This document shows, piece after piece, positions 45,981-64,000 of a stretch of 64,000 nucleotides of DNA. This DNA is from Taibaiella sp. KBW10. Its GTDB lineage: Bacteria; Bacteroidota; Bacteroidia; Chitinophagales; Chitinophagaceae. The translations under genes were made by a program, and so were the position numbers. Where the stretch lies: the NCBI RefSeq assembly GCF_003852495.1, contig NZ_QAJI01000001.1, positions 318,786 to 382,785 on the forward strand, given 5' to 3'. Each line of letters starts with the position of its first letter. Position 1 is the stretch's first letter. The notes under the pieces were generated by a model. That model searched no databases, was not told the origin of the DNA, and saw nothing but the letters and a program-made list of their open reading frames with translations.

Positions 45981-46027
45981 TATACTATTAAAAGAGCCAT
46001 ACGGTGTATGGCTCTTTTAATAGTATA
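45981..46027. terminator. Very long perfect stem-loop between convergent genes
   Basis: 22-bp perfect arms (tatactattaaaagagccatac and its complement) with a GGT loop; A/T tracts on both sides suit both strands. Confidence 0.9.
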
Positions 46028-46166
46028 GGGAAGAAGTATGAGTATCCAATCTGCTAAAAAAGAGCATTCGATACCGCATCGCGAGCAGCTACCGGGCACC
46101 GTTTATAAGACAGAAAATATATCGTAAAACACCAATTCATTTTTTCTTTCCGGCCGATTTACCTTA

Positions 46167-48218: not shown

Positions 48219-48614
48219 AAAATCGCTATTATAATAATTACAAAATAGTTTGTCGGCTAAGGTAAACGTCAAGCATTACCGGAACATGTCCTTTATATTA
48301 TCTTTTATTAAATCACATGAATAGGTATTGTTACCAAATTCAAATTTTTACACTTCAATCAGACGAAGAAAAATATGCAGCGATTTCCTACATGGAAATT
48401 CGAATTGCTCGCTAAAAAATCGAAACAAACACTACCTCAACAAGTAGTGATGTCATAAAGCAGTCGATAAAACAATATAGCACCCGCTCGACATATGAGT
48501 ATCTAAAGTGGGCAACCATCCCGATAGTGTTGATATTTAATTCATAAAACATTGAGTTAATTTTTTATTCATTTAGGTTTAACAAGCACATAACATATAT
48601 GAACAATATTTGCA
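48219..48614. other. Divergent spacer between two T9SS cargo genes
   Basis: 396 nt, AT-rich, no coding frame. An AATATTTG box (near TAnnTTTG) sits at 48605-48612; if used, transcription would start around 48620 and the right-hand gene would begin at ATG 48636 or 48639 rather than 48615. Confidence 0.45.
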
Positions 48615-51563
48615 ATGCCTAAAACATTTCTCAACATGATGAAATTCCACACGGGATCGATTACAACATCTCCCTCAGTGCCTTCAAAAAGCACTGCCGA
48701 AACTCGAAAGACAAGCTCACGCTTGTCGAAACTGAAAGTTATTGCCGGAGTAGCATTCATGATGCTGACATCGTCTTTAACCGCCTCTGCGACGCTCATT
48801 AACAGTACAGTCACCTGTACACAGACCACCACTGCTACCACATCTTGCGTAAATGGTTTTTATGCAAGCGGCTGGAACTCTAACAACGGAAACTGGACGT
48901 ACGCGCTGAACACTACAGGGTTTACAGGCATCACCATGAATTTTAATACCAGCTCATCTGGTACCGGGCCAACTAAAGGCTATGTTTATTATAACATTGG
49001 TGCAAGTGATGTACTGGTGGATAGCTATTCGGTAAACACAAGCTGTGCACTAAAGACATTTACCCTTCCTACGGCTTGTAATAATAAAGCCAATTTGCAA
49101 ATCAAATTGAAGATGATCAATGCCTCGGCAGCGGGCGGCACCAATCGTGTTCCGTCTAATGGTGTATTTGACGGAACGAATACAAGCGGCTGTTCAGGAA
49201 CCCCTACAAGCGGTACAGTGAGTAGCAACAAAACGGCTATCTGCGGTGCTGATTCTGTATTGTTCACCCTTGGTGGTGCTGCAAGTGGTACAAGTATCAG
49301 TTACCAATGGCAATCATCTCCGAATAATAGCAGCTGGAGCAACATTGCGGGTGCTACTGCACTTACCTACAAAGGTTTTGTATCTGCATCAACTTACTAC
49401 CGTGCGGTAACAACTTGTGCCGGTTCTGGCTTATCTGCCAATTCTAATGCACAACTAGTAACGGTAAATGCACTTCCTTCGGTAAATCCTATCACAGGCG
49501 GCAGCAGCTCACCTTTATTAATTGGCCAAACTGTTAGTCTATCTAACACGACAGCCGGTGGTGTATGGAGCAGCAGCAATACTTCTGTAGCGACTGTTAA
49601 TACATCCGGTTTAGTAACAACAGTAAGCGGCGGTACCGCAGTCATTAAGTACACTGTTGAAGCTTCTGGTTGTGAAAATGCAGCTACAACTAATGTAAAT
49701 GTTGTATGGCCTAATACTTTGGCCTTGTATGCCGGCTACAACGGCAGCAATACCAATGTAATCACTATTGCCGGTGAAACTTCAGGTGCTTTAACCGCAC
49801 ATAATTTTACGGTATTAGACACCCCATCTACACCTTGTGCTTCCGGTGGATTAAGTGGTTTGAATATACTGCCTTCAGTAACGGCTTTCAACAGCGCTAC
49901 AGGACCTTACGTTTCCTATGTATTGACGCCTGATGCCGGTAAAGCATTAAACATTACCCGTATTACTGCTAAAACACGCGAATCTGATTCCTCTGCATTA
50001 AAAGCACGTATTGCTTACCGTGTTAACGGTGGAGCTTGGATAGACGAGAACCGCGATGTGACACAAAGCAGAGGTGGTAACTGTGGTGCTAACTCTAATG
50101 TATGGGATTTCACTTTGAATGGTGCTAACCCTACAGTAAATGGCATTACCGGTACATTGGAAGTTGCTGTATTCCCTTATGCAACCGCTACCAAATATGG
50201 TACTTTCCAATTAAACAACCTTGAGGTATATGGTACGATCACCACTGCCGCTGTTTGTGCAGGTACTCCAGGTGCAGGTGCAGTTACACCTGCTGCAGTG
50301 AACATTTGTGATAGTGGTTCCCGTTGGTTGAACTTTGCAGGAGATGCAGGTTCAGGTATTACGTACCAATGGCAGAAATCTACAGATAATGTAAACTTCA
50401 CGGATATTTCCGGTGCTACTGCCGCTACTTACAATACAGGTAATTTGATTGCAGGTGTTGCACCGGCAATTAACTATTACCGTGTAAAAACAATCTGCTC
50501 AGGTTCTGGTTTATCATCATTCTCTCCTGCTGATACTGTAAATGTAAACACTACAGGAAGCCTGGGTGCCTTTACCGCTCCTGACTATCTGCATATCGGA
50601 ACACCGGTTACCATTACAGCACCCGTTAGCGGTGGTAAATGGAGCAGCAATGATATGAGTGTAGCTACTATTGACAGCCTTAGCGGTGTTGCGACACCAC
50701 ACATCCCTGGTGATGCCGTATTTACCTACAGCAAAACAACTAACGGATGTACTGCGCGCAGCAGAGATACCGTAAATGTGATCTATCCTAATACAATCGC
50801 TGCATACATTGGTAAAAACGGAAAAAGCACTGTCGTAACCACTGCAAGCGGTTATACCGCTACCGCATTGGTAAATGCAGGATTTGATACCACACAGAAA
50901 TGTACCAACGGAGGATTAAGTGGTTTGAAAAAAGATGGTTTGATGACCTATTCTGACTTAGGGCCTCATGTATCTTTCACATTAAATATCGGCAGCAGCA
51001 CACCTATTGACATTACCGGTTTCTACGCTACCCTGCGTCGCTCAAACTCTGGTATAGCTAAAGCACGCCTGGCTTATAATTTAGATGGTAGCTTCTGGTT
51101 TGACGGTGGTGAATTAAATGTATTGGCTGATGATTGTGGTTATAGTTCTGCAGTACTGTCTCATTCAGATTTGTCCTTCCTTACTGGCCTGATCAATTCT
51201 AATCAAGTTGAATTTGCTATTTATGGTTATGGCCCAATTGCTAATGGTGGTACTTTACAAATCAATGCAATTGATATTACAGCCAGTGGTTCTTCGGTAT
51301 ATTTATCTAAGAAAATACCGCTTAGTATCCTGGCAGGTGATGCAGTAACTATTTATCCTAATCCGGCTACTAATGTATTGAACATTACAGCTCAGGAAGC
51401 GGTGAATGTAACCATCTTCAGCATTGAAGGAAAACAATTGATGAATGCAGCGAAGGCGACATCGGTTGATGTAAGCCGCCTGGCAGCCGGAACATATATG
51501 GTTCAGGTACGCAGCGCAGCAACGAATACTTTAATTAAAACTTTAAAATTCTCTAAACAATAA
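48615..51563 (+). CDS. T9SS type A cargo protein with duplicated Ig/BIG2 module
   Basis: 982 residues. The hydrophobic signal core lies at residues 41-59 behind an unusually long Ser/Thr/Lys-rich N-region. After a beta domain (60-190) come two copies of a module of about 350 residues (193-545 and 548-893), each made of an Ig-like unit (SYQWQSSPNNSSWSNIAG / TYQWQKSTDNVNFTDISG), a BIG2-like unit (GGVWSSSNTSVATVNTSGLV / GGKWSSNDMSVATIDSLSGV) and a novel-looking beta module with a CASGGLSGL / CTNGGLSGL motif. C-terminal type A sorting domain IYPNPATNVLNITA ... LAAGTYMVQV. Surface or extracellular, probable adhesin or glycan binder. Confidence 0.9.
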   Translation: MPKTFLNMMKFHTGSITTSPSVPSKSTAETRKTSSRLSKLKVIAGVAFMMLTSSLTASATLINSTVTCTQTTTATTSCVNGFYASGWNSNNGNWTYALNTTGFTGITMNFNTSSSGTGPTKGYVYYNIGASDVLVDSYSVNTSCALKTFTLPTACNNKANLQIKLKMINASAAGGTNRVPSNGVFDGTNTSGCSGTPTSGTVSSNKTAICGADSVLFTLGGAASGTSISYQWQSSPNNSSWSNIAGATALTYKGFVSASTYYRAVTTCAGSGLSANSNAQLVTVNALPSVNPITGGSSSPLLIGQTVSLSNTTAGGVWSSSNTSVATVNTSGLVTTVSGGTAVIKYTVEASGCENAATTNVNVVWPNTLALYAGYNGSNTNVITIAGETSGALTAHNFTVLDTPSTPCASGGLSGLNILPSVTAFNSATGPYVSYVLTPDAGKALNITRITAKTRESDSSALKARIAYRVNGGAWIDENRDVTQSRGGNCGANSNVWDFTLNGANPTVNGITGTLEVAVFPYATATKYGTFQLNNLEVYGTITTAAVCAGTPGAGAVTPAAVNICDSGSRWLNFAGDAGSGITYQWQKSTDNVNFTDISGATAATYNTGNLIAGVAPAINYYRVKTICSGSGLSSFSPADTVNVNTTGSLGAFTAPDYLHIGTPVTITAPVSGGKWSSNDMSVATIDSLSGVATPHIPGDAVFTYSKTTNGCTARSRDTVNVIYPNTIAAYIGKNGKSTVVTTASGYTATALVNAGFDTTQKCTNGGLSGLKKDGLMTYSDLGPHVSFTLNIGSSTPIDITGFYATLRRSNSGIAKARLAYNLDGSFWFDGGELNVLADDCGYSSAVLSHSDLSFLTGLINSNQVEFAIYGYGPIANGGTLQINAIDITASGSSVYLSKKIPLSILAGDAVTIYPNPATNVLNITAQEAVNVTIFSIEGKQLMNAAKATSVDVSRLAAGTYMVQVRSAATNTLIKTLKFSKQ

Positions 51564-51591
51564 GGAACATAAAAACCATATTGTTTTATCT

Positions 51592-51631
51592 GATTACACA
51601 ACCTCTTTCCAGAGGTTGTGTAATCTTTTTA
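51592..51631 (+). terminator. Terminator of the 982-residue cargo gene
   Basis: Perfect stem gattacacaacctct / agaggttgtgtaatc, TTCC loop, TTTTT. Confidence 0.93.
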
Positions 51632-51709
51632 CGTGCATCAATTTTCCTTTCCGTTTTGCTTACCCAAAGAGATAAAATTTAAGTAAAGAGATTTCAAAAT
51701 CATAAAAAA

Positions 51710-54493
51710 ATGATCAAATATTATAAAATTCTATTCTTCCTATTCAGTCTGATACCTTTTCTTGCTCAAGGACAAACAGACACCATTGCCTTCTGGACTT
51801 TCGAAAGCCAGTCAGGGCAGCAATTAATTACACCACCCAATATCTATGGGCCTTTAAGCCCGGAACAAGGTATTGGTACCTTAACAAGCTTGCATCAAAA
51901 TGGTGCCTATGCCGCCACTTTCGCTAATCCCGGAAACGGCACACCCAAGTCTTTAAACATTAACCGGTGGACCACCATTGGCGATTATATTCAATTTAAA
52001 GTAAATACTACCGGCAAATCAACTATTCGCATCGCATTTGAACAAGGAAGTGCCAGCGCAAATGGCCCGAGCGATTTTAAGGTATCCTACAGTACAGACG
52101 GTATCACCTTCACCGATCTGCCCGCAGGCAGTTTTCAACAAACCGCTTCTTTAACCGGCGACTGGACTGCTGCGAATTATGTACAAGGATTTACTAAAAG
52201 TTTTAACCTCCCCGCTGCTTTAAACAATATGGCCAATGCCTATATCAGGCTGTCTACGACTTCGCTGGCAAGCGTGTCACCCGGCGGTTTAGTCGCTCCG
52301 GCAGGTAATTCCCGCTTCGACAACATCCTTATTACCGGCATCTCTACGGTCACTACCTCCCAAATTACCAATGTAGCGACCAATGACTCGTCATTTTGTA
52401 ATGCAGCTGCCAATAGCTTTTCGGTATCTTTCAATACCACCGCCACCATCCCTACTACTTACACCGCTGAGCGCTCCGATGCATCGGGTAGTTTTGCTGC
52501 ACCTGTCGTGATCGGCAGTGGTACGGCATCGCCCATAGCCGCCACAATTCCGGCCGGAACAGCAGCAGGCAGCAATTACCGTATCCGTGTGGTAGCAACG
52601 GGCAGCATCAGTCAAAACACAGCTGGCCCAATAGTGATAGATCCCGCCATATCTATATCCTTGCAGCCCTCCGGCTTTACGGTGTGCGAGGGCGCTATCG
52701 TTAACTTCGAAATGCAAAGTACCAATGCACAAACATTTCAGTGGTTATACAACGGTAGTCCCGTAGCCAACAATTCATGGACAAACTCTTACAACCTATC
52801 TGCGGCTTTGCCAAGCGATGCAGGAAACTACAGCGTAGCGCTGACCAATGGAGCCTGTGCCGATACGACGAACAATGCAGTCATAGTGGTGAACCCTGGT
52901 ACGATACCCAATAACACCACGGTAAGCGGCTTGCGATTTTTGAGCTCCGGGAGTTATTTTCCGGTTATCGCCAACAACGGCAGTTGTGGCAGATTAGCGA
53001 TGATTAAGGCACTCAACAATACTTTGGGTAACACTACGGTTACCGTTACAGCAGGGGCTCCGCAACAAGCAGGAACCAATGGCCCCTGGTATGTGGGGCG
53101 TTATTACAATCTTAACGCCGCTACCCCGCCAACGGGTAATGTAGCCCTAAGCCTTTATTTCAGTCCGCAGGACTGGATCGCCTACAATCAATCTGCCCCG
53201 GTTGCGCAGCAGATAGTGGTCAACCAAACCGCGCAAACATTAGGGAACTTATATTTCTCCAAACTGACCAATGTTAATGATCTGGGAACGGGCAATGGGG
53301 TATTACTCACACCCGATTCGGTACGTTTTCAAAACGGATACTGGAAGGTGAGTCTAACGGTGAATGGCTTTAATAATCTCTCTACTTTCTATGCACATGG
53401 AAATAATTTTGCGCCTTGTGCCACACCAACGATCAGCATTACGGAGAGTATCAACAATATTTGTTCCGGCACAACCGTAAGTTTTTCTGCGGTAGTAACC
53501 AATCAAGGCACGGCTCCGGGCTATCAATGGCAGGTGAATGGCACGAACGTTGCTACGGGCATATCATACAGCTATACGCCTGCAAACGGCGATATTGTAA
53601 GGTGTATCCTGACCAATACAAACTGTTTTAATCCGACCACAGCAACCAGCAATGTTATTACGATGCAGGTAAACGCCACTGTAACGCCAGGTATTGTGAT
53701 CTCGACCAGCAACCCCACTTCCTGTTCGGGTGCACCGGTAAGCTATACAGCTACACCGAGCAATGGCGGTACAAGTCCGGTCTATCAATGGAAGGTAAAT
53801 GGTGCTAATATGGGAAGCAATAGCCCAAGCTTTGATTATACACCCGCTAATGGCGATTTAATCTCCTGCGAATTAACGAGCAATGCCCCTTGTTTGACCA
53901 CCAATATACCTGTGCTCAGTAACACCATCACCGCAAATGTAAGCAGCATTATTACCGCGGCGATCAATGTGACCGCCAATCCTTCAAGCAATGCCGTTCC
54001 CGGTACGCCGATTGTTTATACGGCTAATGTGTCTGGTACAACCGTTTACCGCTTAGAATGGTATGTGAACGGACAACTGATCCAACAACAGCAAAGCCCT
54101 GATCATACTTTTACAAGCACTGCAGCGGCAGTACCCGATACCGTTTATGCTGTATTAAAAGTAAATGGATGTTTTACCGATTCCGTTTATCAATCTAATA
54201 AAGTAGTGGTGTCTTCTGCCACCGGTATTCCTAAGCTTAGTGCTGAGGTAGGATTAAGATTTTATCCAAATCCTGTTTTGAATCAATTGACGGTTGCGGT
54301 GAATCAAGGCGAATTAAAATCCGTGCAATTAATTAATACGATAAGTCAAACCCAGCAGATAGAACAAACCATAACCAATCAAAAGCAGGTAGTGAATTTG
54401 TCCCGTTTTGCATCGGGCATTTACTATGTAAAAGTTCTGGTAAAGTATCAGGGCAAAGATTACATTATTGTGGAGAAAATTATTAAAGATTAG
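51710..54493 (+). CDS. T9SS type A cargo protein with Ig-like repeats
   Basis: 927 residues. Signal peptide 1-22 (ILFFLFSLIPFLAQGQ). Jelly-roll-like domain about 24-210 (DTIAFWTFES ... SRFDNILITGI), FN3/CalX-like stretch 215-312, an Ig-like domain about 315-395 (LQPSGFTVCEGAIVNFEMQ, PSDAGNYSVALTNG), a beta domain 400-568 with GRLAMIKALNNT and GPWYVGRYYNL, two near-identical Ig-like repeats (571-655 and 660-745; SYTPANGDIVRC and DYTPANGDLISC), one further PKD-like unit and the type A sorting domain (FYPNPVLNQLTVAV ... FASGIYYVKV). Own terminator; no enzyme motif seen. Confidence 0.9.
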   Translation: MIKYYKILFFLFSLIPFLAQGQTDTIAFWTFESQSGQQLITPPNIYGPLSPEQGIGTLTSLHQNGAYAATFANPGNGTPKSLNINRWTTIGDYIQFKVNTTGKSTIRIAFEQGSASANGPSDFKVSYSTDGITFTDLPAGSFQQTASLTGDWTAANYVQGFTKSFNLPAALNNMANAYIRLSTTSLASVSPGGLVAPAGNSRFDNILITGISTVTTSQITNVATNDSSFCNAAANSFSVSFNTTATIPTTYTAERSDASGSFAAPVVIGSGTASPIAATIPAGTAAGSNYRIRVVATGSISQNTAGPIVIDPAISISLQPSGFTVCEGAIVNFEMQSTNAQTFQWLYNGSPVANNSWTNSYNLSAALPSDAGNYSVALTNGACADTTNNAVIVVNPGTIPNNTTVSGLRFLSSGSYFPVIANNGSCGRLAMIKALNNTLGNTTVTVTAGAPQQAGTNGPWYVGRYYNLNAATPPTGNVALSLYFSPQDWIAYNQSAPVAQQIVVNQTAQTLGNLYFSKLTNVNDLGTGNGVLLTPDSVRFQNGYWKVSLTVNGFNNLSTFYAHGNNFAPCATPTISITESINNICSGTTVSFSAVVTNQGTAPGYQWQVNGTNVATGISYSYTPANGDIVRCILTNTNCFNPTTATSNVITMQVNATVTPGIVISTSNPTSCSGAPVSYTATPSNGGTSPVYQWKVNGANMGSNSPSFDYTPANGDLISCELTSNAPCLTTNIPVLSNTITANVSSIITAAINVTANPSSNAVPGTPIVYTANVSGTTVYRLEWYVNGQLIQQQQSPDHTFTSTAAAVPDTVYAVLKVNGCFTDSVYQSNKVVVSSATGIPKLSAEVGLRFYPNPVLNQLTVAVNQGELKSVQLINTISQTQQIEQTITNQKQVVNLSRFASGIYYVKVLVKYQGKDYIIVEKIIKD

Positions 54494-54520
54494 AAAAAGA
54501 CATCAATCATAACATCTTAT

Positions 54521-54565
54521 GTAAAAAGAGCAAGCTACTCACTATGGGTAGCTTGCTCTTTTTAC
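54521..54565 (+). terminator. Terminator of the 927-residue cargo gene
   Basis: Stem gtaaaaagagcaagctac / gtagcttgctctttttac, 9-nt loop, A/T tracts on both sides. Confidence 0.93.
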
Positions 54566-55058
54566 ATATATCAAGTGTACCCGATAGTAAGCACCTGTAT
54601 GCTTTCAATATATTTGAAAAGAGGATAAAGAAGCACTCCCCGAAGACAATCCCTCTTCTTCTTTGCTCCTATACAATCAGGCCAAATTTTTGCGGATACA
54701 ACCCTACTCAAGTACCAAAAATCAGTGCATAAAGACTAACAAATTTCTTAGTTATAATAAACATCTTTTTCTTCTTTTTTGCCCGGCAGCTAACTAAAAA
54801 AAATACCTGAAATTTATGCACTACGTCGTATAATGGCGTAAGCTCGTGCTACTTTTACATTATAGAAACGGAGCACAATAATCTGAAATTGCATCTTTCT
54901 TAAACAGGACAAAACACCCTCATCACCATTGTACCTTGTAAGAAAATGCCTTTCTGAATCGCCCTGCCATTGTCGTATTTATTAGACCGGTCGTACAGGC
55001 ACCGGCAGGGCATTGTATTTCCGTTTCCAACCATTATAAACCTTAAAATCCAAACATC
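54566..55058. other. Gene-free region with an inverted repeat near the beta-helix gene
   Basis: About 490 nt. The left part is AT-rich without coding frames. At 54961-55011 gccctgcc pairs with ggcagggc across a 35-nt loop that itself contains the palindrome gaccggtc; this would be part of the 5' untranslated region of the gene at 55059. Confidence 0.5.
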
Positions 55059-57290
55059 ATGTCCGTAATTATTGTAAGCGCATCCGCTACCCTCAACACC
55101 GCTTATTTTGCCGCCGGCAACGTCTATGAATTCCTTAACAACCACGATTTACAAACAGCCGCTATCACGCTGCCCGCCAATGTTACGCTCCGCTTTAAAG
55201 GCGGTAGTCTGGACAACGGTATGCTAATCGGTACCGATACCATTATCGAGGCCCCAAGAGCCCGGATATTTGGCAAGAACCTTGCTATTGAGCCTACAGG
55301 CACCTGGAAAGTTGACCGTGCCTACTCCGATTGGTTCGATTGCTACAAAGACGGGTACTATATCGACCCGGCGACCTTTACTTATAATGCCGGGACGGGC
55401 ACCTATCAATACAAATATGCCGGTACCACTTTTAATGCCGGAGAGCTCTGCGGTGCAACATTTAACAATGATCGCTTTATGCTGCAGCAGCTCCTGAATA
55501 TCGGCGCCTTGCACACTATTATTACCGAAGGGGTATACATGGTGGATAGTCTGGGTGGTACAGGAGAACACGTTGCCAATCAATTAACCTGGTTTGGCAA
55601 GAAAGGCCTCACCTTGGAAATTGAAGGGATACTGAAAATGATCCCCAACAAGCACAACAACTATAATGTGCTGCTGGTAGCCGAATGTGATAACATAACC
55701 CTTTGCGGTTCGGGAAAACTAGTCGGTGATCTGCCGGAACACCAAGGCACTGGCGGAGAAGCAGGCATGTGTCTGCAGGTCAATTCTACAGTAAACATGC
55801 ATCTTGAAGACCTGACTTTCGAGCAGGGCTGGGGCGACGGTATCTATTATTCCTGGAGAAGGTATTACAGCCTTACCGATAAAAACAAACAGGAAAAACA
55901 CACCTGGAATCAGGTCAAATGCTTGTACAACCGCCGCACGGGCTTCGCCGTCGAGAAAGGAGACTACCTGTCCATCAACAACAGCGACTTCAATTATACA
56001 GCCACGTTTAACGGTACCGCAACTTTCTCAGGTGTGGATATCGAACCATTTGGTAGCGACGATACGCCGCAACGTTATTGTAAGGAGATTCATTTCAACC
56101 AATGCCGTGCCAATTACAATAAAGGTACCGGCTTCCGTTTCGAGCGCTTAATGGGCGGCTCTGTCACCAATTCCGAGGCCTCATTCAATGGTGGCGCGGC
56201 GGTTGAAACCTTAGAATGTTACTTCGTTAATGAAGATAAAGTCTGGGGGGTGCATGTAACCGAAACCGACAGACGTTTCTTTAAAAATCACATCATCATA
56301 GATGCGAATACTTTCAAGGATAACTGGATTACGTTTGTCTCATCAAATAGTTCGGCCAATATCACGAACAACTTTATCCAGAATACGAGTATGGTGATGA
56401 ATGGCGCATGGCAAGACTCTATCGTAGCCAACAATAAAGTGTTTAACACGGGTTATGTATTTTTTCTGTCGGGGCACCTGCGCAACCTGCTTTTTGAACA
56501 CAACTACGTAGAGGGTATTGACTGCCCGAACGAAGGTACTGCAGCAGGCGATAGTGCCGCGATGTTTATCATCCGCCAATGGGGCACACCTGCAGACCAT
56601 GTAAGCGACGTAGTTGTTCAAAACAACACCTTTAAATATGCCGGTGGCAAGATCATCTATGGCAGTAACGACAGCCAGCCGATGCCTTATCCTTCTGTAA
56701 AAAATTATCTGTTCTTTGTAGAAAACGGACCGACAGTAGAGAAGATCAAATTCCTGGACAACCACTTTGACGATGAGCTGTGGGCTCCGGAAATAAACAC
56801 CAATGGATACACCTTGTTTGAAACAGCTGCAGATCCAAAAATCATTCAGCGCAGAACCTTCAGTGTAGCAGATCTGCAGAAAACCAAACACCTGATGAAA
56901 GGCGATATTATCGAAGCATATGGTCAGAAAGGTTTGGTAACGAGAGGTGGCTGGCTGGAGACTATTGGTACAACCTTTGCCAACAGTACCGCTTATGAGC
57001 GATACCAGATCATAAACGATGGCATGCAATCCGGTATGTCCCTGGTCGTTGGTGCCGGCACCACTGCAGCAGGCGGCGGATTCCCCTATGGTTACGGAGG
57101 AAGCGGAACTGCTTCAATCCGGCCAATCAATATCGATTACCCGGTAATCGTTTGGCAAAATCTGGGTACCTGCACCACGGGTGATCGTCCGACAGATTTC
57201 AATACACTGGGCAGAACCCTTGTAGAGATAAATCCGGGCGTATCCAGCCAAATGATCCAATGGGACGGATCGGCATGGGTAGTATTGTAA
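55059..57290 (+). CDS. Right-handed beta-helix protein, tail-spike-like, without signal peptide
   Basis: 743 residues. N-terminus MSVIIVSASATLNTAYFAAG has no signal peptide or lipobox. A head-like segment is followed by KGGSLDNGMLIGTDTIIEA, typical of the entry into a parallel beta-helix, and a long helix region (about 190-600) with stacked Asn/hydrophobic strands (NITLCGSGKLVGDL, NMHLEDLTFEQGWGDGIYYSW, KEIHFNQCRANYNKGTGFRFER). The C-terminus GTCTTGDRPTDFNTLGRTLVEINPGVSSQMIQWDGSAWVVL resembles the C-terminal caps of phage tail-fibre/spike and related proteins. No phage genes surround it. Base composition seems more GC-rich than its flanks. It could be a domesticated spike or a cytoplasmic/contractile-system fibre; no catalytic residues are assigned. 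Confidence 0.72.
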   Translation: MSVIIVSASATLNTAYFAAGNVYEFLNNHDLQTAAITLPANVTLRFKGGSLDNGMLIGTDTIIEAPRARIFGKNLAIEPTGTWKVDRAYSDWFDCYKDGYYIDPATFTYNAGTGTYQYKYAGTTFNAGELCGATFNNDRFMLQQLLNIGALHTIITEGVYMVDSLGGTGEHVANQLTWFGKKGLTLEIEGILKMIPNKHNNYNVLLVAECDNITLCGSGKLVGDLPEHQGTGGEAGMCLQVNSTVNMHLEDLTFEQGWGDGIYYSWRRYYSLTDKNKQEKHTWNQVKCLYNRRTGFAVEKGDYLSINNSDFNYTATFNGTATFSGVDIEPFGSDDTPQRYCKEIHFNQCRANYNKGTGFRFERLMGGSVTNSEASFNGGAAVETLECYFVNEDKVWGVHVTETDRRFFKNHIIIDANTFKDNWITFVSSNSSANITNNFIQNTSMVMNGAWQDSIVANNKVFNTGYVFFLSGHLRNLLFEHNYVEGIDCPNEGTAAGDSAAMFIIRQWGTPADHVSDVVVQNNTFKYAGGKIIYGSNDSQPMPYPSVKNYLFFVENGPTVEKIKFLDNHFDDELWAPEINTNGYTLFETAADPKIIQRRTFSVADLQKTKHLMKGDIIEAYGQKGLVTRGGWLETIGTTFANSTAYERYQIINDGMQSGMSLVVGAGTTAAGGGFPYGYGGSGTASIRPINIDYPVIVWQNLGTCTTGDRPTDFNTLGRTLVEINPGVSSQMIQWDGSAWVVL

Positions 57291-57387
57291 AGTGTTCCAA
57301 GTTCGTACACAGGCAGATGACTGTCTAAGCTAATGAAGTATTACAACGGTGTGTATACAGCGGATAATCTTCATCAGATACCCATTA

Positions 57388-57424
57388 AAAACGTGGCTGT
57401 CCGTATTTTCGGACAGCCACGTTT
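57388..57424 (+). terminator. Terminator of the beta-helix gene
   Basis: Stem aaaacgtggctgtccg / cggacagccacgttt around TATTTT, about 97 nt past the stop. T tract is short. Confidence 0.75.
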
Positions 57425-57731
57425 GATGTGCACACACTTGGCGCAGCGTTCTGAGGATTAGCGCACTGGTCGGCTGCATCTTTGCTCCTGAATAAATTTC
57501 CGCGCTGTTTCCTCTTATTAGCCCCAGACAATTTCTACTGTATTGACGCTCAATAACTATGCTATTACCAACAGCCAGACGAATGATTAGCAGCACCTGT
57601 AACAAGGTCTATTGATATCCAAGTGATTAAAAAAATAATCAAATATTACTAATTTATTTAAGACGTTTTTAACATTTTTTAATAATTACATGTAATATCT
57701 TTATATCTCACTAAAATTAAATATAACTTTT
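57425..57731. other. Spacer upstream of the lanthipeptide precursor gene
   Basis: 307 nt with no coding frame. The last 100 nt are extremely AT-rich. TATCTTTA at 57696-57703, 18 nt after TTT at 57675-57677, is a weak Bacteroidota promoter whose predicted start lies about 20 nt before the precursor ATG. Confidence 0.45.
57675..57703 (+). promoter_or_regulatory. Weak candidate promoter of the precursor gene
   Basis: TTT-N18-TATCTTTA; one mismatch (final A for G) in the -7 box. Position relative to ATG 57732 is appropriate. Confidence 0.35.
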
Positions 57732-57860
57732 ATGAAAAAAGCCAATGTAACACCGAAAAAATTAGTGCTGTCTAAAAAAACAATTGCTGTTTTGAACACA
57801 AACACTAAACAAGAAAGTAACAACAACACTAAACCATCTTGTATTCCTGAGTGCTATTAA
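57732..57860 (+). CDS. lanA: Class I lanthipeptide precursor peptide
   Basis: 42 residues, below usual ORF cut-offs. The leader contains KKLVLSKKTIAVLN (residues 9-22), the L-x-L-x-K-x-TIA-x-L pattern typical of Bacteroidota class I lanthipeptide leaders that bind LanB. The C-terminal part is Thr/Ser/Asn-rich (T23, T25, S29, T33, S36) and ends TKPSCIPECY with Cys37 and Cys41, giving material for two (methyl)lanthionine rings. There is no GG or similar cleavage site, so the leader/core border is uncertain (between about 22 and 33). It is followed after 18 nt by a terminator and faces lanC, so it is monocistronic. Alternative: an unrelated small peptide; the motif plus lanBC neighbours make that unlikely. 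Confidence 0.88.
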   Translation: MKKANVTPKKLVLSKKTIAVLNTNTKQESNNNTKPSCIPECY

Positions 57861-57878
57861 AAGATGATAAAATGCTTC

Positions 57879-57909
57879 AAAATCCCCACTATAATGTGGG
57901 GATTTTTTT
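57879..57909. terminator. Bidirectional terminator between lanA and lanC
   Basis: Stem aaaatccccac / gtggggatttt with TATAAT loop and TTTTTTT tail. The T tract reaches into the lanC stop codon, so both convergent units end here. Confidence 0.92.
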
Positions 57910-59068
57910 ATGGCAATAACACCATCTTTCTCCAATCCGAAAGGCTGCTATCGGATTGCTCCATTAAAACCAACCCAATGCCCGGCAGCCCCGTTAAAAT
58001 ACTTTGTTGCCCTTCACTTTCTTTGTTCTTTATATAGTCCAGTTGCTTAAGCGTTTCCTCCAGCCAATAAAAAGCGGTATGCTTATAAATGTCTGCTCCC
58101 GTTTCCGCATATAAAAAAGTAAATACACTAACCAGACCGCTTGTACCATGGCAAAAGAATGGATCGGATATTGCAGTTTCCGCAGACCTTATCCTTTGTG
58201 TAAGCCTACACCCTAATGCTTCGGCTTCATCAATATACCTTTGGTTCTGCAGATATTTACCTGCTACCGTCAATAAAATCAGGTAACCAAGATCCCCATA
58301 ACACCAGCCTAGCCTTCCAGAAGCGCCGGCCTCTAGGCTAACACTGTTTATCAGCGATGGGAATATGGACAGTGTGCCCTCATAACCGGCTTCCTTTCTA
58401 TAGCCCAGCATATAATCTATACTTTTTTCGACAAACCGCTTGGTAGACACCTGATAACCTAATTGCTTTGCCGCATGGATCAGTATCATTAACATGCCGC
58501 ACTGCCCGTGCGCAAAGCTCAGGTTAAAATTGCCGGCAGCCTCGGCAGATTCCATTCGATTGACGATCAAGGGTGGAGAATGATGATAATATCGCGTCCT
58601 TATTTCTTTAAATATTTTTTTTGCATAGCGGTCTTTGCCCGTGACCTCTGCAAAGTACAGCAGTGTATGTAAAATACCAAAACTGCCATGTAAGGGGTCA
58701 TTTAAGCCGCGCGCTATCATATCGAGTGCCTGCTGTAAAAGATGCCCGGCCAGCAGGTCTGCAGCTTCACAATCGGCCGCGCTTATATATTCCCAATCCC
58801 TCAAGACCATCATTACATACAATAATCCACCATAGCCTAAGCTATATGATGCTCCATCCAGTTTAGGCTCGCCTTCATTAAACGCCTGCAACACTTTGTG
58901 CCATCGGTTTAAACAAAGTTGTTTTACTTTCTTATTATTGCGGCTCAAATAAGCGAAATACAATACCAGACCAAGCTGGCCTGCAAAAAGACTATTCTCT
59001 TGCGGTCGCGTGCTTTGTAATACTTTACTGATCTCGCTGAGTGTATTCCTGATCCGTTGTTTCTCCAT
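57908..59068 (-). CDS. lanC: Lanthionine synthetase C-like cyclase (LanC)
   Basis: 386 residues. Adds Cys thiols to dehydrated Ser/Thr to close lanthionine rings. Alpha/alpha-barrel repeats each with a G-x-x-G motif (AGQLGLVLYFAYL, SLGYGGLLYVMMVL, HGSFGILHTLLYF, AHGQCGMLMILIH, RLGWCYGDLGYLIL, CHGTSGLVSVFTFL, TGLPGIGLVLME). Zinc ligands are Cys256 (GWCYGD), Cys306 and His307 (FFCHGTSG); His187 (FAHGQCG) matches the catalytic His of NisC. All key residues are present, so it should be active. ATG 59068 is preferred; a GTG at 59107, 7 nt after the lanB stop, is an alternative that would couple translation. Confidence 0.94.
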   Translation of the reverse strand: MEKQRIRNTLSEISKVLQSTRPQENSLFAGQLGLVLYFAYLSRNNKKVKQLCLNRWHKVLQAFNEGEPKLDGASYSLGYGGLLYVMMVLRDWEYISAADCEAADLLAGHLLQQALDMIARGLNDPLHGSFGILHTLLYFAEVTGKDRYAKKIFKEIRTRYYHHSPPLIVNRMESAEAAGNFNLSFAHGQCGMLMILIHAAKQLGYQVSTKRFVEKSIDYMLGYRKEAGYEGTLSIFPSLINSVSLEAGASGRLGWCYGDLGYLILLTVAGKYLQNQRYIDEAEALGCRLTQRIRSAETAISDPFFCHGTSGLVSVFTFLYAETGADIYKHTAFYWLEETLKQLDYIKNKESEGQQSILTGLPGIGLVLMEQSDSSLSDWRKMVLLP

Positions 59069-59114
59069 TGCACTATTTATTTTAATGTTATAAAGGCGCT
59101 GACACACTGCGTAT

Positions 59115-62100
59115 TTATGATGATGTTTTGCGGTTATCGGACCTTGCGATTTGTCCGCTGTAGTACTGGTAGAGAAAGTCGTACAGCACCAGTTCGTGCT
59201 CCCTTTGCTGTGTGGCTATGAGCCGGTTGACCAGCATATGGATATGGCTTTTAATCAGGTGATTTAAGGGCACATCCAAGATACCCGCATGCTCCATCCT
59301 GATAATTTCACTTACCAGCGGTTTGATCTTTTCGTTCTTAGCCGACAGTATGCAGTGAAGTGTAGCCGCATATTCTGTATCAATATTACTTTCCATTATA
59401 GCGTCGATGTTTTGCTTTTGTTCCCGATACAAAAGGCCAAGCTGTTTCTTGAATGCATGGTCAACCGTGAATTCCCGGGCAAAAGCTTCTTTCAGTTCTG
59501 AGGTGATCTGTTGCTTTTGCCGGATGGTATATCCGCAGGCATTTAAAAAATTGTCAATGGCCGGTATCACCGCCTGCCAGGAAGCTTGCGGATCATCTGC
59601 TGTATCATTGGCCGAGATGATATCAAGCGCCGCTATACTATCATGGTAAAATATCGCCTCAGACAGTGTTATCGCGCTTGTACCATACCTTGAAAGCTCG
59701 GGTTTATAAGTATCTATCTGCACATCCCTTACCAACCCCGATTGGTATACTTCTTTAAAGACATCATTGATATGATTGATAACATCTGAAAGGGATACCT
59801 CATCCTGCAGCTTTAGCCTAAGCCTTATGTGATAATCAGGATCCATATACCTTATGAAGAAAAAACTGCTGATAAGCCGCGTAGAAAGCAGTTTTTGGGT
59901 AAGGGATTTCAGCAGCTGGCTCAATATCCTGTCGCCGGCTTGGGCACTAAGGTATATTTTGTAGTAAAGCCACTGCATGCCCGGTGGATAGCATTGAGGT
60001 ATCGCTGCGTTTAATATTACTTTATAATTTTCCTGTTGATACACCTTATTTGTATTTATAAGAGGCGCTAAAACCTGGCCCTGGTAATAATGTCCATTTT
60101 CGTCGCGGAATTGCGGTGCAAGGTCGAAGCACTCCCGTAGCTCAATATGCTCTTTCTGCCGGATATAGTCTATAAAAACAGCAACAGCCATAGGATCATT
60201 AAAGTCTATGGGCAATTCATTATCGTCCTCAATAAGCAAGACCTTGCCGGGAAGTGTATACTTTTCAATAAACGATTTTAAGGTAGTGGTAATGTCCCCT
60301 TTCCTAAAAAGATCGCTCAGGTCTTCTCTTGTAAAGCGCCAGCGGGCAGCCGACAAAATAATACCGTCGTATTCTACTCTTGGTAAATAAGTATAAAGGT
60401 TTTGTAGGGCACCCCAATTAAAATTTATTGACCGCTTCAAACCCTGAAACTGCAGGTCACATAGAAACTGATAAATGGGCAAAGCATTGTAGGTATAATT
60501 ATGGGCACTGCTCAACCTGGGTATAATATGAGTACCGTTTTTTTTGTCGTACACAATAACCGTGCCGTCCTTTACACATACCATAATATCCTGAAGTGGA
60601 ATTTGCATGGTGCGTGGCCGGGAAGATAGGGAAAGACAAGGAATTTCGTACGCTCGGAAAGCAGGATGGCATAATATATTACCGGCACGGCTATCCCCGA
60701 AATGCGCGATTTCTGCAAAAGTTATATCCGAGTTCAATGATTGTTCCTTTTCAGCGATGTTTTGACAAATGTCATTAATCTCTTTATTTGCAAATGCAAA
60801 CCGGGATAATAGGTTGATAGCACTGGAACCACCGCAACTTTCGATATAAATTTTAGGGATATCCTCATCTGACACCAACCTGAATAAAAGATGCATGGAA
60901 GGAGGTAGCTGCTCCCAATGCGCCACTAAAGCCTGGCAATCGCTATCATACAGTTTTATAACAGCAGCACCATCGACTAAAAGCTGTACCATCTTTTTTT
61001 GCAGTAGTTTTTCAAATGGTTGCAGGACATAGCCAAGTTCTTCTTTTTTGGAAGGAAAAACCAATGCTGCTAAAAGCGGGCTATCTTCGTTCTGACCGCT
61101 ATTTACATAAATAATACCAAACTCTGGATCGAGCACTTCGAGTATAGGCATACTGGTATTATTGCCATAACGTTTTTCAAAAACGGTCGCAAAGTTTTGT
61201 AAGGCCCGCCCCTCTTCTGCCTTTGCACTAAAACAATTCATGATTTTCAAAGTCTGTAACAAACGGGGTTGCAATGAAGCAGGAAATCCTTTTGCTATGG
61301 TGGCTTTAGAAAGGTCGACATGGAACAAGTTGCGCTCATCAAATGCCGGGCCAATAGGCCTCAATAACCGCATAATATCCTCATAAACCGTTTCATCATT
61401 CCCCATTACACGATCTGTTTCCTCCAGTTTCTTGGCCACTAGATACAGCGTGTTCAATATACTTAAAAGGTATTCATCTTTATTGATATCATACACTCTT
61501 TGAAGTGTTTTCAGTATTTGCTGTAAAAATCCATCCCCATGTAAAGCAGGTTCCAGTTCGCTGATAAGCACCTGTGCATTTATAAGTACTTCAATGAAAT
61601 CGTCCGCTTCTTCAGCAGCAATGTCGGGCGAAACAAGGAGTGCTTTTATATCGGGTAATGCAATGCCCTCACTGGCCCTGTTAATGACAAGATCAAGGTA
61701 ATCCGATGCAGCCAGGGCACTTATTTGATGTACGCCATTTTCTTTGCTCTGTTGGCACTCAATGTAGCGCCATTCATCCTGTACTTTGTATAAACTATTG
61801 TTTGCATAAAAAAGAAGATTTGTGAAAATGCAGGGCCGCCTGGAAAGATGTTTGCCCAACTCCCGTAAATAATGGATATCAAGCACTGTATGGCGCGACT
61901 GTCTATTTTTCAGCACATCGATATCTTCATCAGACCACTCACTAACGTGGCAACCGGAAAACAAACCAAAGGGTGTAGCCCTATTCGCGGAACGCCACCA
62001 ATATTTCATCAAAGAACGGCTGATTTTATTTTTCGTTTTTTCATTAACGACAAAACCATTACGGTATTTCATGCATGCGTCATATAATGTGGGCGAGGCA

Positions 62101-62228
62101 AGGTAAACCGACTCCATAAAGGCAGCATCTTCTAACAGATCTTCCCAGTTGTTGATCATATTGCCGGAGTCGTATGGTAGCCTGGGTGTGCGTACCACAA
62201 TTTGGGGATAAAATTGAAATGGTAACAT
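59115..62228 (-). CDS. lanB: Full-length lantibiotic dehydratase (LanB)
   Basis: 1037 residues, the size of a complete class I LanB. N-terminal glutamylation domain (about 1-720) beginning FQFYPQIVVRTPRLPYDSG and including KYWWRSANRATPFGLFSGC (RxTPFGLFxG motif, residues about 73-91) that binds glutamyl-tRNA and the leader; C-terminal SpaB_C elimination domain (about 745-1030) with WLYYKIYLSAQAGDRIL, SFFFIRYMDPDYHIRLRLK and KPELSRYGTSAITLSEAIFYHDS. It uses glutamyl-tRNA to activate Ser/Thr and then eliminates glutamate. First gene of the lanBC operon. Confidence 0.95.
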   Translation of the reverse strand: MLPFQFYPQIVVRTPRLPYDSGNMINNWEDLLEDAAFMESVYLASPTLYDACMKYRNGFVVNEKTKNKISRSLMKYWWRSANRATPFGLFSGCHVSEWSDEDIDVLKNRQSRHTVLDIHYLRELGKHLSRRPCIFTNLLFYANNSLYKVQDEWRYIECQQSKENGVHQISALAASDYLDLVINRASEGIALPDIKALLVSPDIAAEEADDFIEVLINAQVLISELEPALHGDGFLQQILKTLQRVYDINKDEYLLSILNTLYLVAKKLEETDRVMGNDETVYEDIMRLLRPIGPAFDERNLFHVDLSKATIAKGFPASLQPRLLQTLKIMNCFSAKAEEGRALQNFATVFEKRYGNNTSMPILEVLDPEFGIIYVNSGQNEDSPLLAALVFPSKKEELGYVLQPFEKLLQKKMVQLLVDGAAVIKLYDSDCQALVAHWEQLPPSMHLLFRLVSDEDIPKIYIESCGGSSAINLLSRFAFANKEINDICQNIAEKEQSLNSDITFAEIAHFGDSRAGNILCHPAFRAYEIPCLSLSSRPRTMQIPLQDIMVCVKDGTVIVYDKKNGTHIIPRLSSAHNYTYNALPIYQFLCDLQFQGLKRSINFNWGALQNLYTYLPRVEYDGIILSAARWRFTREDLSDLFRKGDITTTLKSFIEKYTLPGKVLLIEDDNELPIDFNDPMAVAVFIDYIRQKEHIELRECFDLAPQFRDENGHYYQGQVLAPLINTNKVYQQENYKVILNAAIPQCYPPGMQWLYYKIYLSAQAGDRILSQLLKSLTQKLLSTRLISSFFFIRYMDPDYHIRLRLKLQDEVSLSDVINHINDVFKEVYQSGLVRDVQIDTYKPELSRYGTSAITLSEAIFYHDSIAALDIISANDTADDPQASWQAVIPAIDNFLNACGYTIRQKQQITSELKEAFAREFTVDHAFKKQLGLLYREQKQNIDAIMESNIDTEYAATLHCILSAKNEKIKPLVSEIIRMEHAGILDVPLNHLIKSHIHMLVNRLIATQQREHELVLYDFLYQYYSGQIARSDNRKTSS

Positions 62229-62614
62229 AGGTTGCAGATTAGGGAATAATATGAGTACTGTAAGTTAGTTAGGAGAAAAATTACAAATCTTATGCGCGTT
62301 GCAGCTATCCCAAATAGATTTTAATTATCTTTTAACATAATTATGGATTATATATATTAAAAGACAAATGTTTTCTGTTTTCAAAACCACAACATACAAA
62401 ACCAAGAATTGTAAAGCCACAAGTGGACTGTACTCCGCCATTTCTCGGCTTATTTGATGCAAAACCTATTGCCATCCAATACAGAATCCCAGGAAAGTGT
62501 TATACTAACCTTTAAGCAATAAAAGAAACAACAAATTCACTTCCAGTTCGTTTTAACGAAATATTATTCCCGTCAGGCTAAATCATTATTACAATTTATT
62601 CCGATTTTTGAATC
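62229..62614. other. Divergent spacer lanB / oxidoreductase
   Basis: 386 nt, AT-rich. Searched on both strands for a second precursor: a 38-codon minus-strand frame from 62440 (MAEYSPLV) has no leader motif or C-terminal cysteines. Otherwise only the candidate lanB promoter. Confidence 0.55.
62284..62314 (-). promoter_or_regulatory. Candidate promoter of lanBC
   Basis: Minus strand TTTG (62314-62311), 18-19 nt, (TA)AGATTTG (62292-62284). Near-consensus; leader of about 50 nt to the lanB ATG. Confidence 0.4.
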
Positions 62615-63550
62615 ATGAAAGCGTATTTACTATATGAAGCCGGAGGAACCGACAAACTGATTCTTGGCGAAGCTGAGCGGCCCACTTTAAAAAGCGGGGA
62701 AGTTTTAATTAAGGTAAAAGCCATCGGTATAAACCCGGCCGATACCATTTATCGTAATTCGCCGACATTTATTACGCATATATTCGGTGAGGAGCGACCC
62801 GTAATAATGGGTTGGGATATAGCCGGGGAGATTGTAGAAAAGGCGGAGCATACCGACGGATTTGAGATAGGTGATGCCGTTTTTGCCCTTTTGCAAAATG
62901 CGCGTGGTTATGCAGCATTCGTTGCGGTAAATGTGGGTTTATTAGCGCACAAACCAAAGCATATCACTTTCGAAGAAGCGGCGGCTTCGCCGATGGCTGG
63001 TTTGACCGCATGGCAACCACTGGTTCACGGAATGAATATCAAAAAAGGGGACAGAATTCTTATTCATGGCGCTGCAGGGGGTGTGGGTCATTATGCGGTA
63101 CAAATAGCCAAGTACCTGGGCGCGGAGGTAATCGCAACTTCTTCTGCTAAAAATCATGATTTTGTGGTGGCACTCGGTGCTGATCAACACATCGATTACC
63201 AAACTGAAAATTTCTGGGAAGTAATTAAAGATGTCGATTTTGTTTTAGACACCGTCGGGGGCGAAACGCTGGAACGTTCTATTGAAATAACGAAACCCGG
63301 TGGTACCATTATCTCCATCGTCGCGCTTACACAGGAGAACCTCATGCCCAAAGCGAAAGAAAAAAACGTACACCTGTCTTTAAGAGCATTGCAATTTAAT
63401 GGCGCAGATCTGAGAGCATTTGCCGATTTACTCTCAACGGGCGCATTAAAGTCATATATAGCCAGGACATATCCCTTTGCATCTATGGCTGAGGCACATC
63501 AACAGGTAGAAACCCGCCGTACCGCCGGGAAAATAGTCCTTAAAATGTAA
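62615..63550 (+). CDS. NADP-dependent medium-chain oxidoreductase (quinone-oxidoreductase type)
   Basis: 311 residues, MDR family without structural zinc. GroES-like N-terminal domain (KVKAIGINPADTIYR, VIMGWDIAGEIVE) and Rossmann domain with GAAGGVGHYAVQIAKYLGAEVIATSS (about 148-173), then VLDTVGGETLERSIEITKPGGTIISI. The lack of zinc-ligand cysteines and this length suit NADPH quinone/enal reductases. Its link to the lanthipeptide locus is only positional: divergent, with 386 nt between. Confidence 0.92.
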   Translation: MKAYLLYEAGGTDKLILGEAERPTLKSGEVLIKVKAIGINPADTIYRNSPTFITHIFGEERPVIMGWDIAGEIVEKAEHTDGFEIGDAVFALLQNARGYAAFVAVNVGLLAHKPKHITFEEAAASPMAGLTAWQPLVHGMNIKKGDRILIHGAAGGVGHYAVQIAKYLGAEVIATSSAKNHDFVVALGADQHIDYQTENFWEVIKDVDFVLDTVGGETLERSIEITKPGGTIISIVALTQENLMPKAKEKNVHLSLRALQFNGADLRAFADLLSTGALKSYIARTYPFASMAEAHQQVETRRTAGKIVLKM

Positions 63551-63746
63551 TGGAATGATCCACCATATAATAGATACATGGTATTCACCCGGATTCTTTA
63601 TGCATGCCCTGCTTGTTCAACAAATCAGGAGCTACGATTTTTTATTATGCCCTAAATGAAGCGCTATTATTATCGGAGGAAGTACAACAAAACAGGAGGA
63701 CACACGCAACTGATTTATAATAAATGGAATGAAAATGTAGAAAAAC
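63551..63746. other. Spacer after the oxidoreductase gene
   Basis: No gene supported. A frame starting at 63656 runs antisense through the tRNA-Pro gene (FEPATPWSQTRCATG), a well-known false-ORF signature. Confidence 0.6.
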
Positions 63747-63775
63747 AAAAGCCCCACTCCAAAGAGCGGGGCTTT
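63747..63775 (-). terminator. Terminator of the tRNA unit
   Basis: Minus-strand stem aaagccccgct / agtggggcttt (one G-T pair) followed by TGTTTTT. Confidence 0.85.
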
Positions 63776-63785
63776 ACTGTTAATG

Positions 63786-63859
63786 TAGGGAAGACAGGGT
63801 TCGAACCTGCGACCCCCTGGTCCCAAACCAGGTGCGCTACCGGACTGCGCTACTTCCCT
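63786..63859 (-). tRNA. tRNA-Pro (anticodon TGG)
   Basis: 74 nt. Acceptor AGGGAAG/CTTCCCT with discriminator A, D arm GCGCAGTCCGGTAGCGC, anticodon arm CCTGG-TTTGGGA-CCAGG, T arm with GGTTCGAACCC. CCA is not encoded. Confidence 0.96.
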
Positions 63860-63875
63860 ATAAAGACTTTAAGTG

Positions 63876-63964
63876 CGGTGAGGGGGGGATTCGAACCCCC
63901 GGTACAGTTTGACCCGTACGTCAGTTTAGCAAACTGGTGATTTCAGCCACTCATCCACCTCACC
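63876..63964 (-). tRNA. tRNA-Ser (anticodon GCT)
   Basis: 89 nt with long variable arm. Acceptor GGTGAGG/CCTCACC, discriminator G, anticodon loop TTGCTAA (GCT), T arm GGTTCGAATCC. CCA is not encoded. 16 nt upstream of tRNA-Pro, so one transcript. Confidence 0.96.
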
Positions 63965-64000
63965 AATACTTTAAGATCTTATCCCTTTTCGTTACCTAAA

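What the first reader, a model, noticed from the sequence alone, without database searches (positions are those of the whole stretch)
57732..62228. Uncharacterised class I lanthipeptide locus with a 42-residue precursor
The sequence shows a tiny gene coding a leader motif (KKLVLSKKTIAVLN) and a tail ending TKPSCIPECY, next to a full-length LanB and a LanC with intact zinc ligands and catalytic His. From knowledge of class I enzymes, this should give a peptide with up to two thioether rings, closing at Cys37 and Cys41, which lie only three residues apart from one another and one residue from the C-terminus. The Asn-rich hinge (TNTKQESNNN) is unlike the classical nisin or pinensin types as I recall them. 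Product and activity are unknown.
Basis: partly seen in the sequence, partly recalled or inferred. Interest (0 to 1): 0.8.

Follow-up and report, generated by a model that had tools for sequence, protein, structure and literature searches.

The report
Small class I lanthipeptide gene trio
A bacterium of the phylum Bacteroidota carries a three-gene kit (a 42-residue peptide plus two enzymes) that very probably makes a small sulphur-bridged peptide of a kind already known from this phylum, but in an unusually stripped-down form with no exporter, protease or regulator beside it.

Summary
The window holds lanA (57732-57860, +, 42 codons) facing a lanB-lanC operon (62228-57908, -). The leader passes NCBI's class I lanthipeptide leader model NF038153 (23.7 bits, cut-off 22), carries the published Bacteroidota motif LxLxKx5L, and is the only such match in the 3.6-Mb genome, 47 bp from its only lanC. 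LanB has both dehydratase domains; LanC keeps catalytic His and all three zinc ligands. A strong terminator hairpin lies between lanA and lanC. So: a real class I lanthipeptide locus of a known type with a new product, not a new class. No Ser/Thr lies between Cys37 and Cys41, so two rings would have to overlap or nest. Unlike most relatives it has no Gly-Gly leader end, C39 transporter, protease or two-component system beside it; export, leader removal and function are unknown. Following the enzymes outward gave more surprising things outside the window: most relatives of this LanB are coupled to a LytTR two-component system; in Hymenobacter the LanC has lost its catalytic residues and the precursors have mostly lost cysteine; another genus has dozens of dispersed class I precursors.

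The parts
57732..57860 (+). lanA: precursor peptide, 42 aa
   Evidence: NF038153 leader match 23.7 bits over cut-off 22; sole match in genome
57732..57806 (+). leader part matched by the L1a model (residues 1-25), motif L11xL13xK15x5L21
   Evidence: motif described in PMC7268733
57828..57857 (+). C-terminal core TKPSCIPECY with Cys37 and Cys41; exact leader/core border unknown
   Evidence: read from sequence
57879..57909 (+). terminator hairpin (11-bp stem, 6-nt loop, T7) between lanA and lanC; A-rich/T-rich on both sides, so possibly shared by both genes
   Evidence: -20.3 kcal/mol for 57855-57925, z -4.1, no shuffle as stable
57908..59068 (-). lanC: lanthionine cyclase, 386 aa from ATG; catalytic His and Zn ligands Cys, Cys-His intact
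59115..62228 (-). lanB: class I (glutamyl-tRNA-dependent type) dehydratase, 1037 aa, both domains complete
   Evidence: only LanB in genome at E<=1e-20

Best explanation
A minimal, probably functional class I lanthipeptide locus of the Bacteroidota LxLxKx5L (NF038153) type. LanB binds the N-terminal leader and dehydrates Ser/Thr of the C-terminal part (candidates Thr23, Thr25, Ser29, Thr33, Ser36) using glutamyl-tRNA; LanC then adds Cys37 and Cys41 to dehydrated residues upstream of them. Because no Ser/Thr lies between the two cysteines or after them, two rings must overlap or nest; the shortest possibility is Thr33-Cys37 plus Ser36-Cys41. Shown here: the three genes, the leader match, complete enzyme domains and catalytic residues, and a hairpin terminator closing the lanA unit. 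Inferred: dehydration, ring formation and ring pattern. Unknown: leader cleavage site, protease, exporter and biological role; they must be supplied from elsewhere in the genome if the peptide leaves the cell.
For: Leader model above curated cut-off and unique in the genome, next to the only LanB and only LanC. Both LanB domains full length; a profile of it matches the solved dehydratases 9g04, MibB-type 5ehk and NisB. LanC aligns with NisC through the catalytic His, Cys and Cys-His motifs and keeps HCCH. Closest relatives (about 33-39% LanB identity) in Chitinophaga, Flavihumibacter, Niastella and Hymenobacter have similar-leader small ORFs beside lanB/lanC. L132/L162 show the closest layout: lanC-lanB plus GG-less, two-Cys precursors with TAGCVTRGC-type cores and no two-component system. 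In the wider LanB clade, Cys-containing precursors go with intact LanC and Cys-poor ones with dead LanC, which fits Cys37/Cys41 being LanC substrates here.
Against: The leader score is only 1.7 bits over cut-off. No exporter or protease lies beside the genes. No relative of LanC exists in the 4 other genomes of the genus and no relative of the peptide in 396 of the family, so purifying selection on the peptide could not be tested. Nothing here shows expression or modification.
Confidence: 0.87

Rival explanations
1. As a statement of role: the locus makes a signalling lanthipeptide, sensed by a LytTR-type two-component system as the gene neighbourhoods of most relatives suggest, here by an unlinked kinase.
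For: Most relatives of this LanB sit beside a His_kinase/LytTR response-regulator pair, in Chitinophagaceae and Hymenobacter alike; same-genus genomes have LanB plus a LytTR pair without LanC. The window genome has five matches to such a kinase at E<=1e-10.
Against: No such pair near the window locus; the own-genome kinases match mostly the kinase core (best 106 bits), which does not mark an orthologue. L132/L162, closest in layout, also lack the pair. Gene linkage could equally mean regulation of a bacteriocin.
Confidence: 0.25
2. As a statement of role: the locus makes an antibacterial or antifungal lantibiotic in the manner of nisin or pinensin.
For: Default role of characterised class I lanthipeptides (established knowledge); pinensins come from the genus Chitinophaga, where the closest LanBs were found.
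Against: No immunity, LanT or LanP genes recognised beside the locus; the core lacks the nisin lipid-II motif SxxxCTP(G/S)C quoted in PMC7268733.
Confidence: 0.35
3. A decaying cluster that has lost its transporter, protease and regulators; the enzymes still look intact but the product no longer matures.
For: Patchy occurrence: LanC absent from 4 other genomes of the genus; accessory genes found in many relatives are missing.
Against: LanB and LanC are uninterrupted with catalytic residues intact; leader and terminator are well preserved; GG-less relatives also lack C39, so its absence is a subtype feature.
Confidence: 0.15
4. The 42-codon ORF is a chance ORF and the real substrate lies elsewhere.
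For: Short peptide; leader only just above cut-off.
Against: Only model match in the genome, and 47 bp from the only lanC; own hairpin terminator; same leader register KKTIAxL as precursors of relatives.
Confidence: 0.03

Closest known systems
Bacteroidota class I lanthipeptides with LxLxKx5L leader (NCBIfam NF038153; Walker et al. 2020, PMC7268733)
   Same: Leader motif and model match; LanB with both domains, LanC intact; phylum.
   Different: No Gly-Gly at the leader end and no C39 transporter; very short (42 aa) precursor; single precursor on the opposite strand.
Chryseobacterium sp. OV715 and Runella limosa LanABC products (PMC9993889)
   Same: Minimal LanA/LanB/LanC set shown to be enough to make thioether rings, with native-type tRNA-Glu/GluRS.
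   Different: Those products have seven dehydrations and three rings; here at most five dehydrations C-terminal of the leader motif and two rings.
PedA15.2 of Pedobacter lusitanus (Bothwell 2021, cited in PMC12328550)
   Same: Characterised Bacteroidota class I lanthipeptide.
   Different: Its leader was removed with LahT150, a protease for GG leaders; its sequence was not compared here.
Pinensins (Chitinophaga pinensis; Mohr 2015, cited in PMC12328550)
   Same: Class I, genus Chitinophaga, where the closest LanBs occur.
   Different: Pinensin cluster is given as 24 kb in PMC8358304; the C. pinensis relative found here (L121) is a LytTR-linked locus and was not shown to be the pinensin cluster.
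Uncultured Chitinophagaceae/Bacteroidetes loci L132 and L162
   Same: lanC-lanB plus GG-less two-Cys precursors, no two-component system, no C39 transporter.
   Different: Two precursors each, 61-64 aa, with Ser/Thr-rich tails beyond the cysteines and a Thr between them; LanB about 35% identical.

Membership tests
Class I lanthipeptide biosynthesis | LanB dehydratase with glutamylation and elimination domains | tested here: met
   PF04738 2-648/649, PF14028 1-255/255; NisB and MibB-type structures matched
Class I lanthipeptide biosynthesis | Separate LanC cyclase with catalytic His and Cys/Cys/His zinc site | tested here: met
Class I lanthipeptide biosynthesis | Precursor with leader and Ser/Thr/Cys core | tested here: met
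Class I lanthipeptide biosynthesis | (Methyl)lanthionine in the product | not testable with these tools
   needs mass spectrometry
Bacteroidota L1a leader family (NF038153) | Score over curated cut-off and LxLxKx5L motif | tested here: met
   23.7 vs 22 bits; L11-L13-K15-L21
GG-leader/C39 subtype of that family | Gly-Gly leader end and C39 ABC transporter in the locus | tested here: not met
   no GG in the peptide; no C39 gene in the neighbourhood; one full C39-ABC on another contig
LytTR-linked LanB loci | His_kinase and LytTR response regulator beside lanB | tested here: not met
   none in window 46001-64000; in the next 20 kb (L064) only a weak regulator-like hit of 26 bits
Pinensin type | Core similar to pinensin | not tested
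   pinensin sequence not fetched

The most novel reading that the evidence does not exclude
The window locus is an outlying member, without its own two-component pair, of a Bacteroidota peptide-signalling family in which LanB-modified small peptides are read by LytTR two-component systems and in which ring closure is optional: LanC intact (Chitinophagaceae), catalytically dead with mostly Cys-less precursors (Hymenobacter), or absent (same genus as the window).
Probability: 0.2. Interest if true: 0.7.

Novelty: new member of a known kind. Interest (0 to 1): 0.35.

Why it matters
By itself it adds one undescribed peptide to a known and growing group of Gram-negative class I lanthipeptides, and is a compact three-gene test case that could be expressed directly. 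Its wider value is as an entry to relatives in which the same kind of dehydratase works with a live, dead or missing cyclase next to a sensor-regulator pair, which makes it testable whether dehydrated but uncyclised peptides serve as signals.

Tried and rejected
A first scan of 84,980 species genomes with the LanB alone found no relative; an alignment of three LanBs then found 46 loci. Search for the 42-aa peptide in 396 family genomes found only itself. Mobility: no long flanking repeats, GC like the surroundings. The stretch upstream of lanB, which encodes a 44-aa Cys-containing ORF (62341-62475, -), is single copy and has no leader motif, so it was not taken as a second precursor. Plasmid search gave only distant LanBs, at most 35% identical. 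An orphan LytTR kinase orthologue in the own genome could not be shown. The sigma-70 scan was uninformative in this AT-rich DNA of an organism with other promoter types.

Full report
Observation. The 42-codon ORF at 57732-57860 (+) and the lanB (59115-62228, -) and lanC (57908-59068 from the ATG, -) genes are present as described. lanB and lanC are on one strand, 46 bp apart, and read as an operon; lanA is on the other strand and converges on lanC. A hairpin with an 11-bp stem followed by seven T lies between lanA and lanC (57879-57909; -20.3 kcal/mol for 57855-57925, z -4.1).

Is it more than chance? The leader scores 23.7 bits with NCBIfam NF038153 (lant_leader_L1a, cut-off 22). In the own genome (3.6 Mb, 12 contigs, 99.8% complete) this is the only match, and it lies 47 bp from the only LanC-like gene, beside the only LanB found at E<=1e-20. 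The motif L11-x-L13-x-K15-x5-L21 is the LxLxKx5L motif reported for Bacteroidetes class I precursors (PMC7268733).

Enzymes. LanB carries complete Lant_dehydr_N and Lant_dehydr_C domains; a five-member profile finds NisB, a MibB-type dehydratase (5ehk) and 9g04 in the PDB (that 5ehk is MibB is from my own knowledge). LanC aligns with NisC over its length, with the AHG, WCYG and CHG motifs in register; in an alignment of the LanC-like proteins from related loci the window's protein has the full His/Cys/Cys/His set.

Relatives. Within the genus (5 genomes) no other genome has this LanC. A tree of 69 LanBs puts the window's protein on a long branch (1.41; best identity 38%) in a supported clade of Chitinophagaceae, Hymenobacter and Flectobacillus-type proteins. 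In that clade three things vary. (a) Leader end and transporter: many loci with Gly-Gly leaders have a C39 ABC transporter (L120, L122, L124, L127, L133, L148, L153), some do not within the stretch held (L119, L121, L123); GG-less precursors (window, L126, L128, L130, L159, L132, L162, Hymenobacter) have no C39 gene of their own directly beside them. (b) Two-component system: most loci have a His_kinase/LytTR pair; the window, L132, L162 and L133 do not. (c) Cyclase: Chitinophagaceae loci keep HCCH, while the Hymenobacter branch and L140 have lost these residues, and 10 of the 13 precursors found there have no Cys, the other three only one. Because (c) concerns one branch of the tree, it is a single evolutionary correlation, not many independent ones.

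Ring pattern. The sequence allows Thr23, Thr25, Ser29, Thr33 and Ser36 as dehydration sites downstream of the leader motif. Since Ile-Pro-Glu lies between the cysteines and only Tyr follows Cys41, separate tandem rings are impossible; two rings would have to overlap (for example Thr33-Cys37 with Ser36-Cys41) or nest. This is inference from sequence under the usual chemistry of class I enzymes. L132/L162 precursors have a comparable core (TAGCVTRGC) but with a Thr between the cysteines.

What is missing. No LanT, LanP, immunity or two-component genes were recognised beside the trio; neighbours are a T9SS-sorted protein, a beta-helix protein, a quinone-oxidoreductase-like gene and two tRNAs. The genome has one full C39 ABC transporter on another contig, but the peptide lacks the Gly-Gly target. 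Lanthipeptide clusters without a clustered protease are well documented (PMC8960859), so this does not argue against function.

Placement. It meets every tested feature of class I lanthipeptide biosynthesis and of the NF038153 leader family, and fails those of the GG/C39 and LytTR-linked subtypes. It is a new member of a known kind. Experimental precedents exist for Chryseobacterium and Runella (PMC9993889) and Pedobacter (cited in PMC12328550).

Limits. The statement that LytTR-linked lanthipeptide loci of Bacteroidota are undescribed rests only on a few searches of one open-access library. Confidences given for the rivals on biological role are not exclusive of the best explanation, which concerns what is made.

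Noticed in passing
L103, L125, L129, L131, L134-L136, L138, L140-L145, L158, L160, L163 (Hymenobacter and one MAG): LanB + LytTR kinase/regulator + LanC-like protein that has lost catalytic His and the zinc site; the small precursors found beside them share a K(F/L)xFxKTxVTxF-type leader and are mostly Cys-free and Ser/Thr-rich. Looks like a cyclase-dead, dehydration-only branch tied to signalling.
   Followed up: partly
L065 12061-12213, L066 6150-6296, L068 12508-12654 (same genus as the window): LanB (920-936 aa) convergent with a LytTR pair, no LanC; short ORFs divergent from the kinase share a Thr-rich tail ending near a single Cys (PTTTTATTQPTISFTCKV and like).
   Followed up: partly
G103, G647, G001 (genus g2 of the family); e.g. 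L002, L012, L019, L030, L004, L020, L031: 25-41 class I leader (NF038153) matches per genome at E<=1e-6, spread over many contigs, with Cys-rich GG-type precursors, while only two LanB loci were seen in G001. Recalls the dispersed prochlorosin precursors of class II, but in class I.
   Followed up: partly
L105 15003-18358: Tandem array of about 18 short, mostly near-identical GG-leader peptides (MKNQNPNKLAFNKAAVAELNDKQMHDVDGGTSPLCIGVIIG...) near a LanB and an ABC transporter.
   Followed up: no
L119 13619-15052, L123 13423-14838: A predicted secreted protein of about 470 aa sits between precursor and kinase in Chitinophaga loci that lack a C39 transporter.
   Followed up: no
window 62341-62475 (-): 44-aa ORF with three Cys just upstream of lanB; single copy in the genome, no leader motif.
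   Followed up: partly
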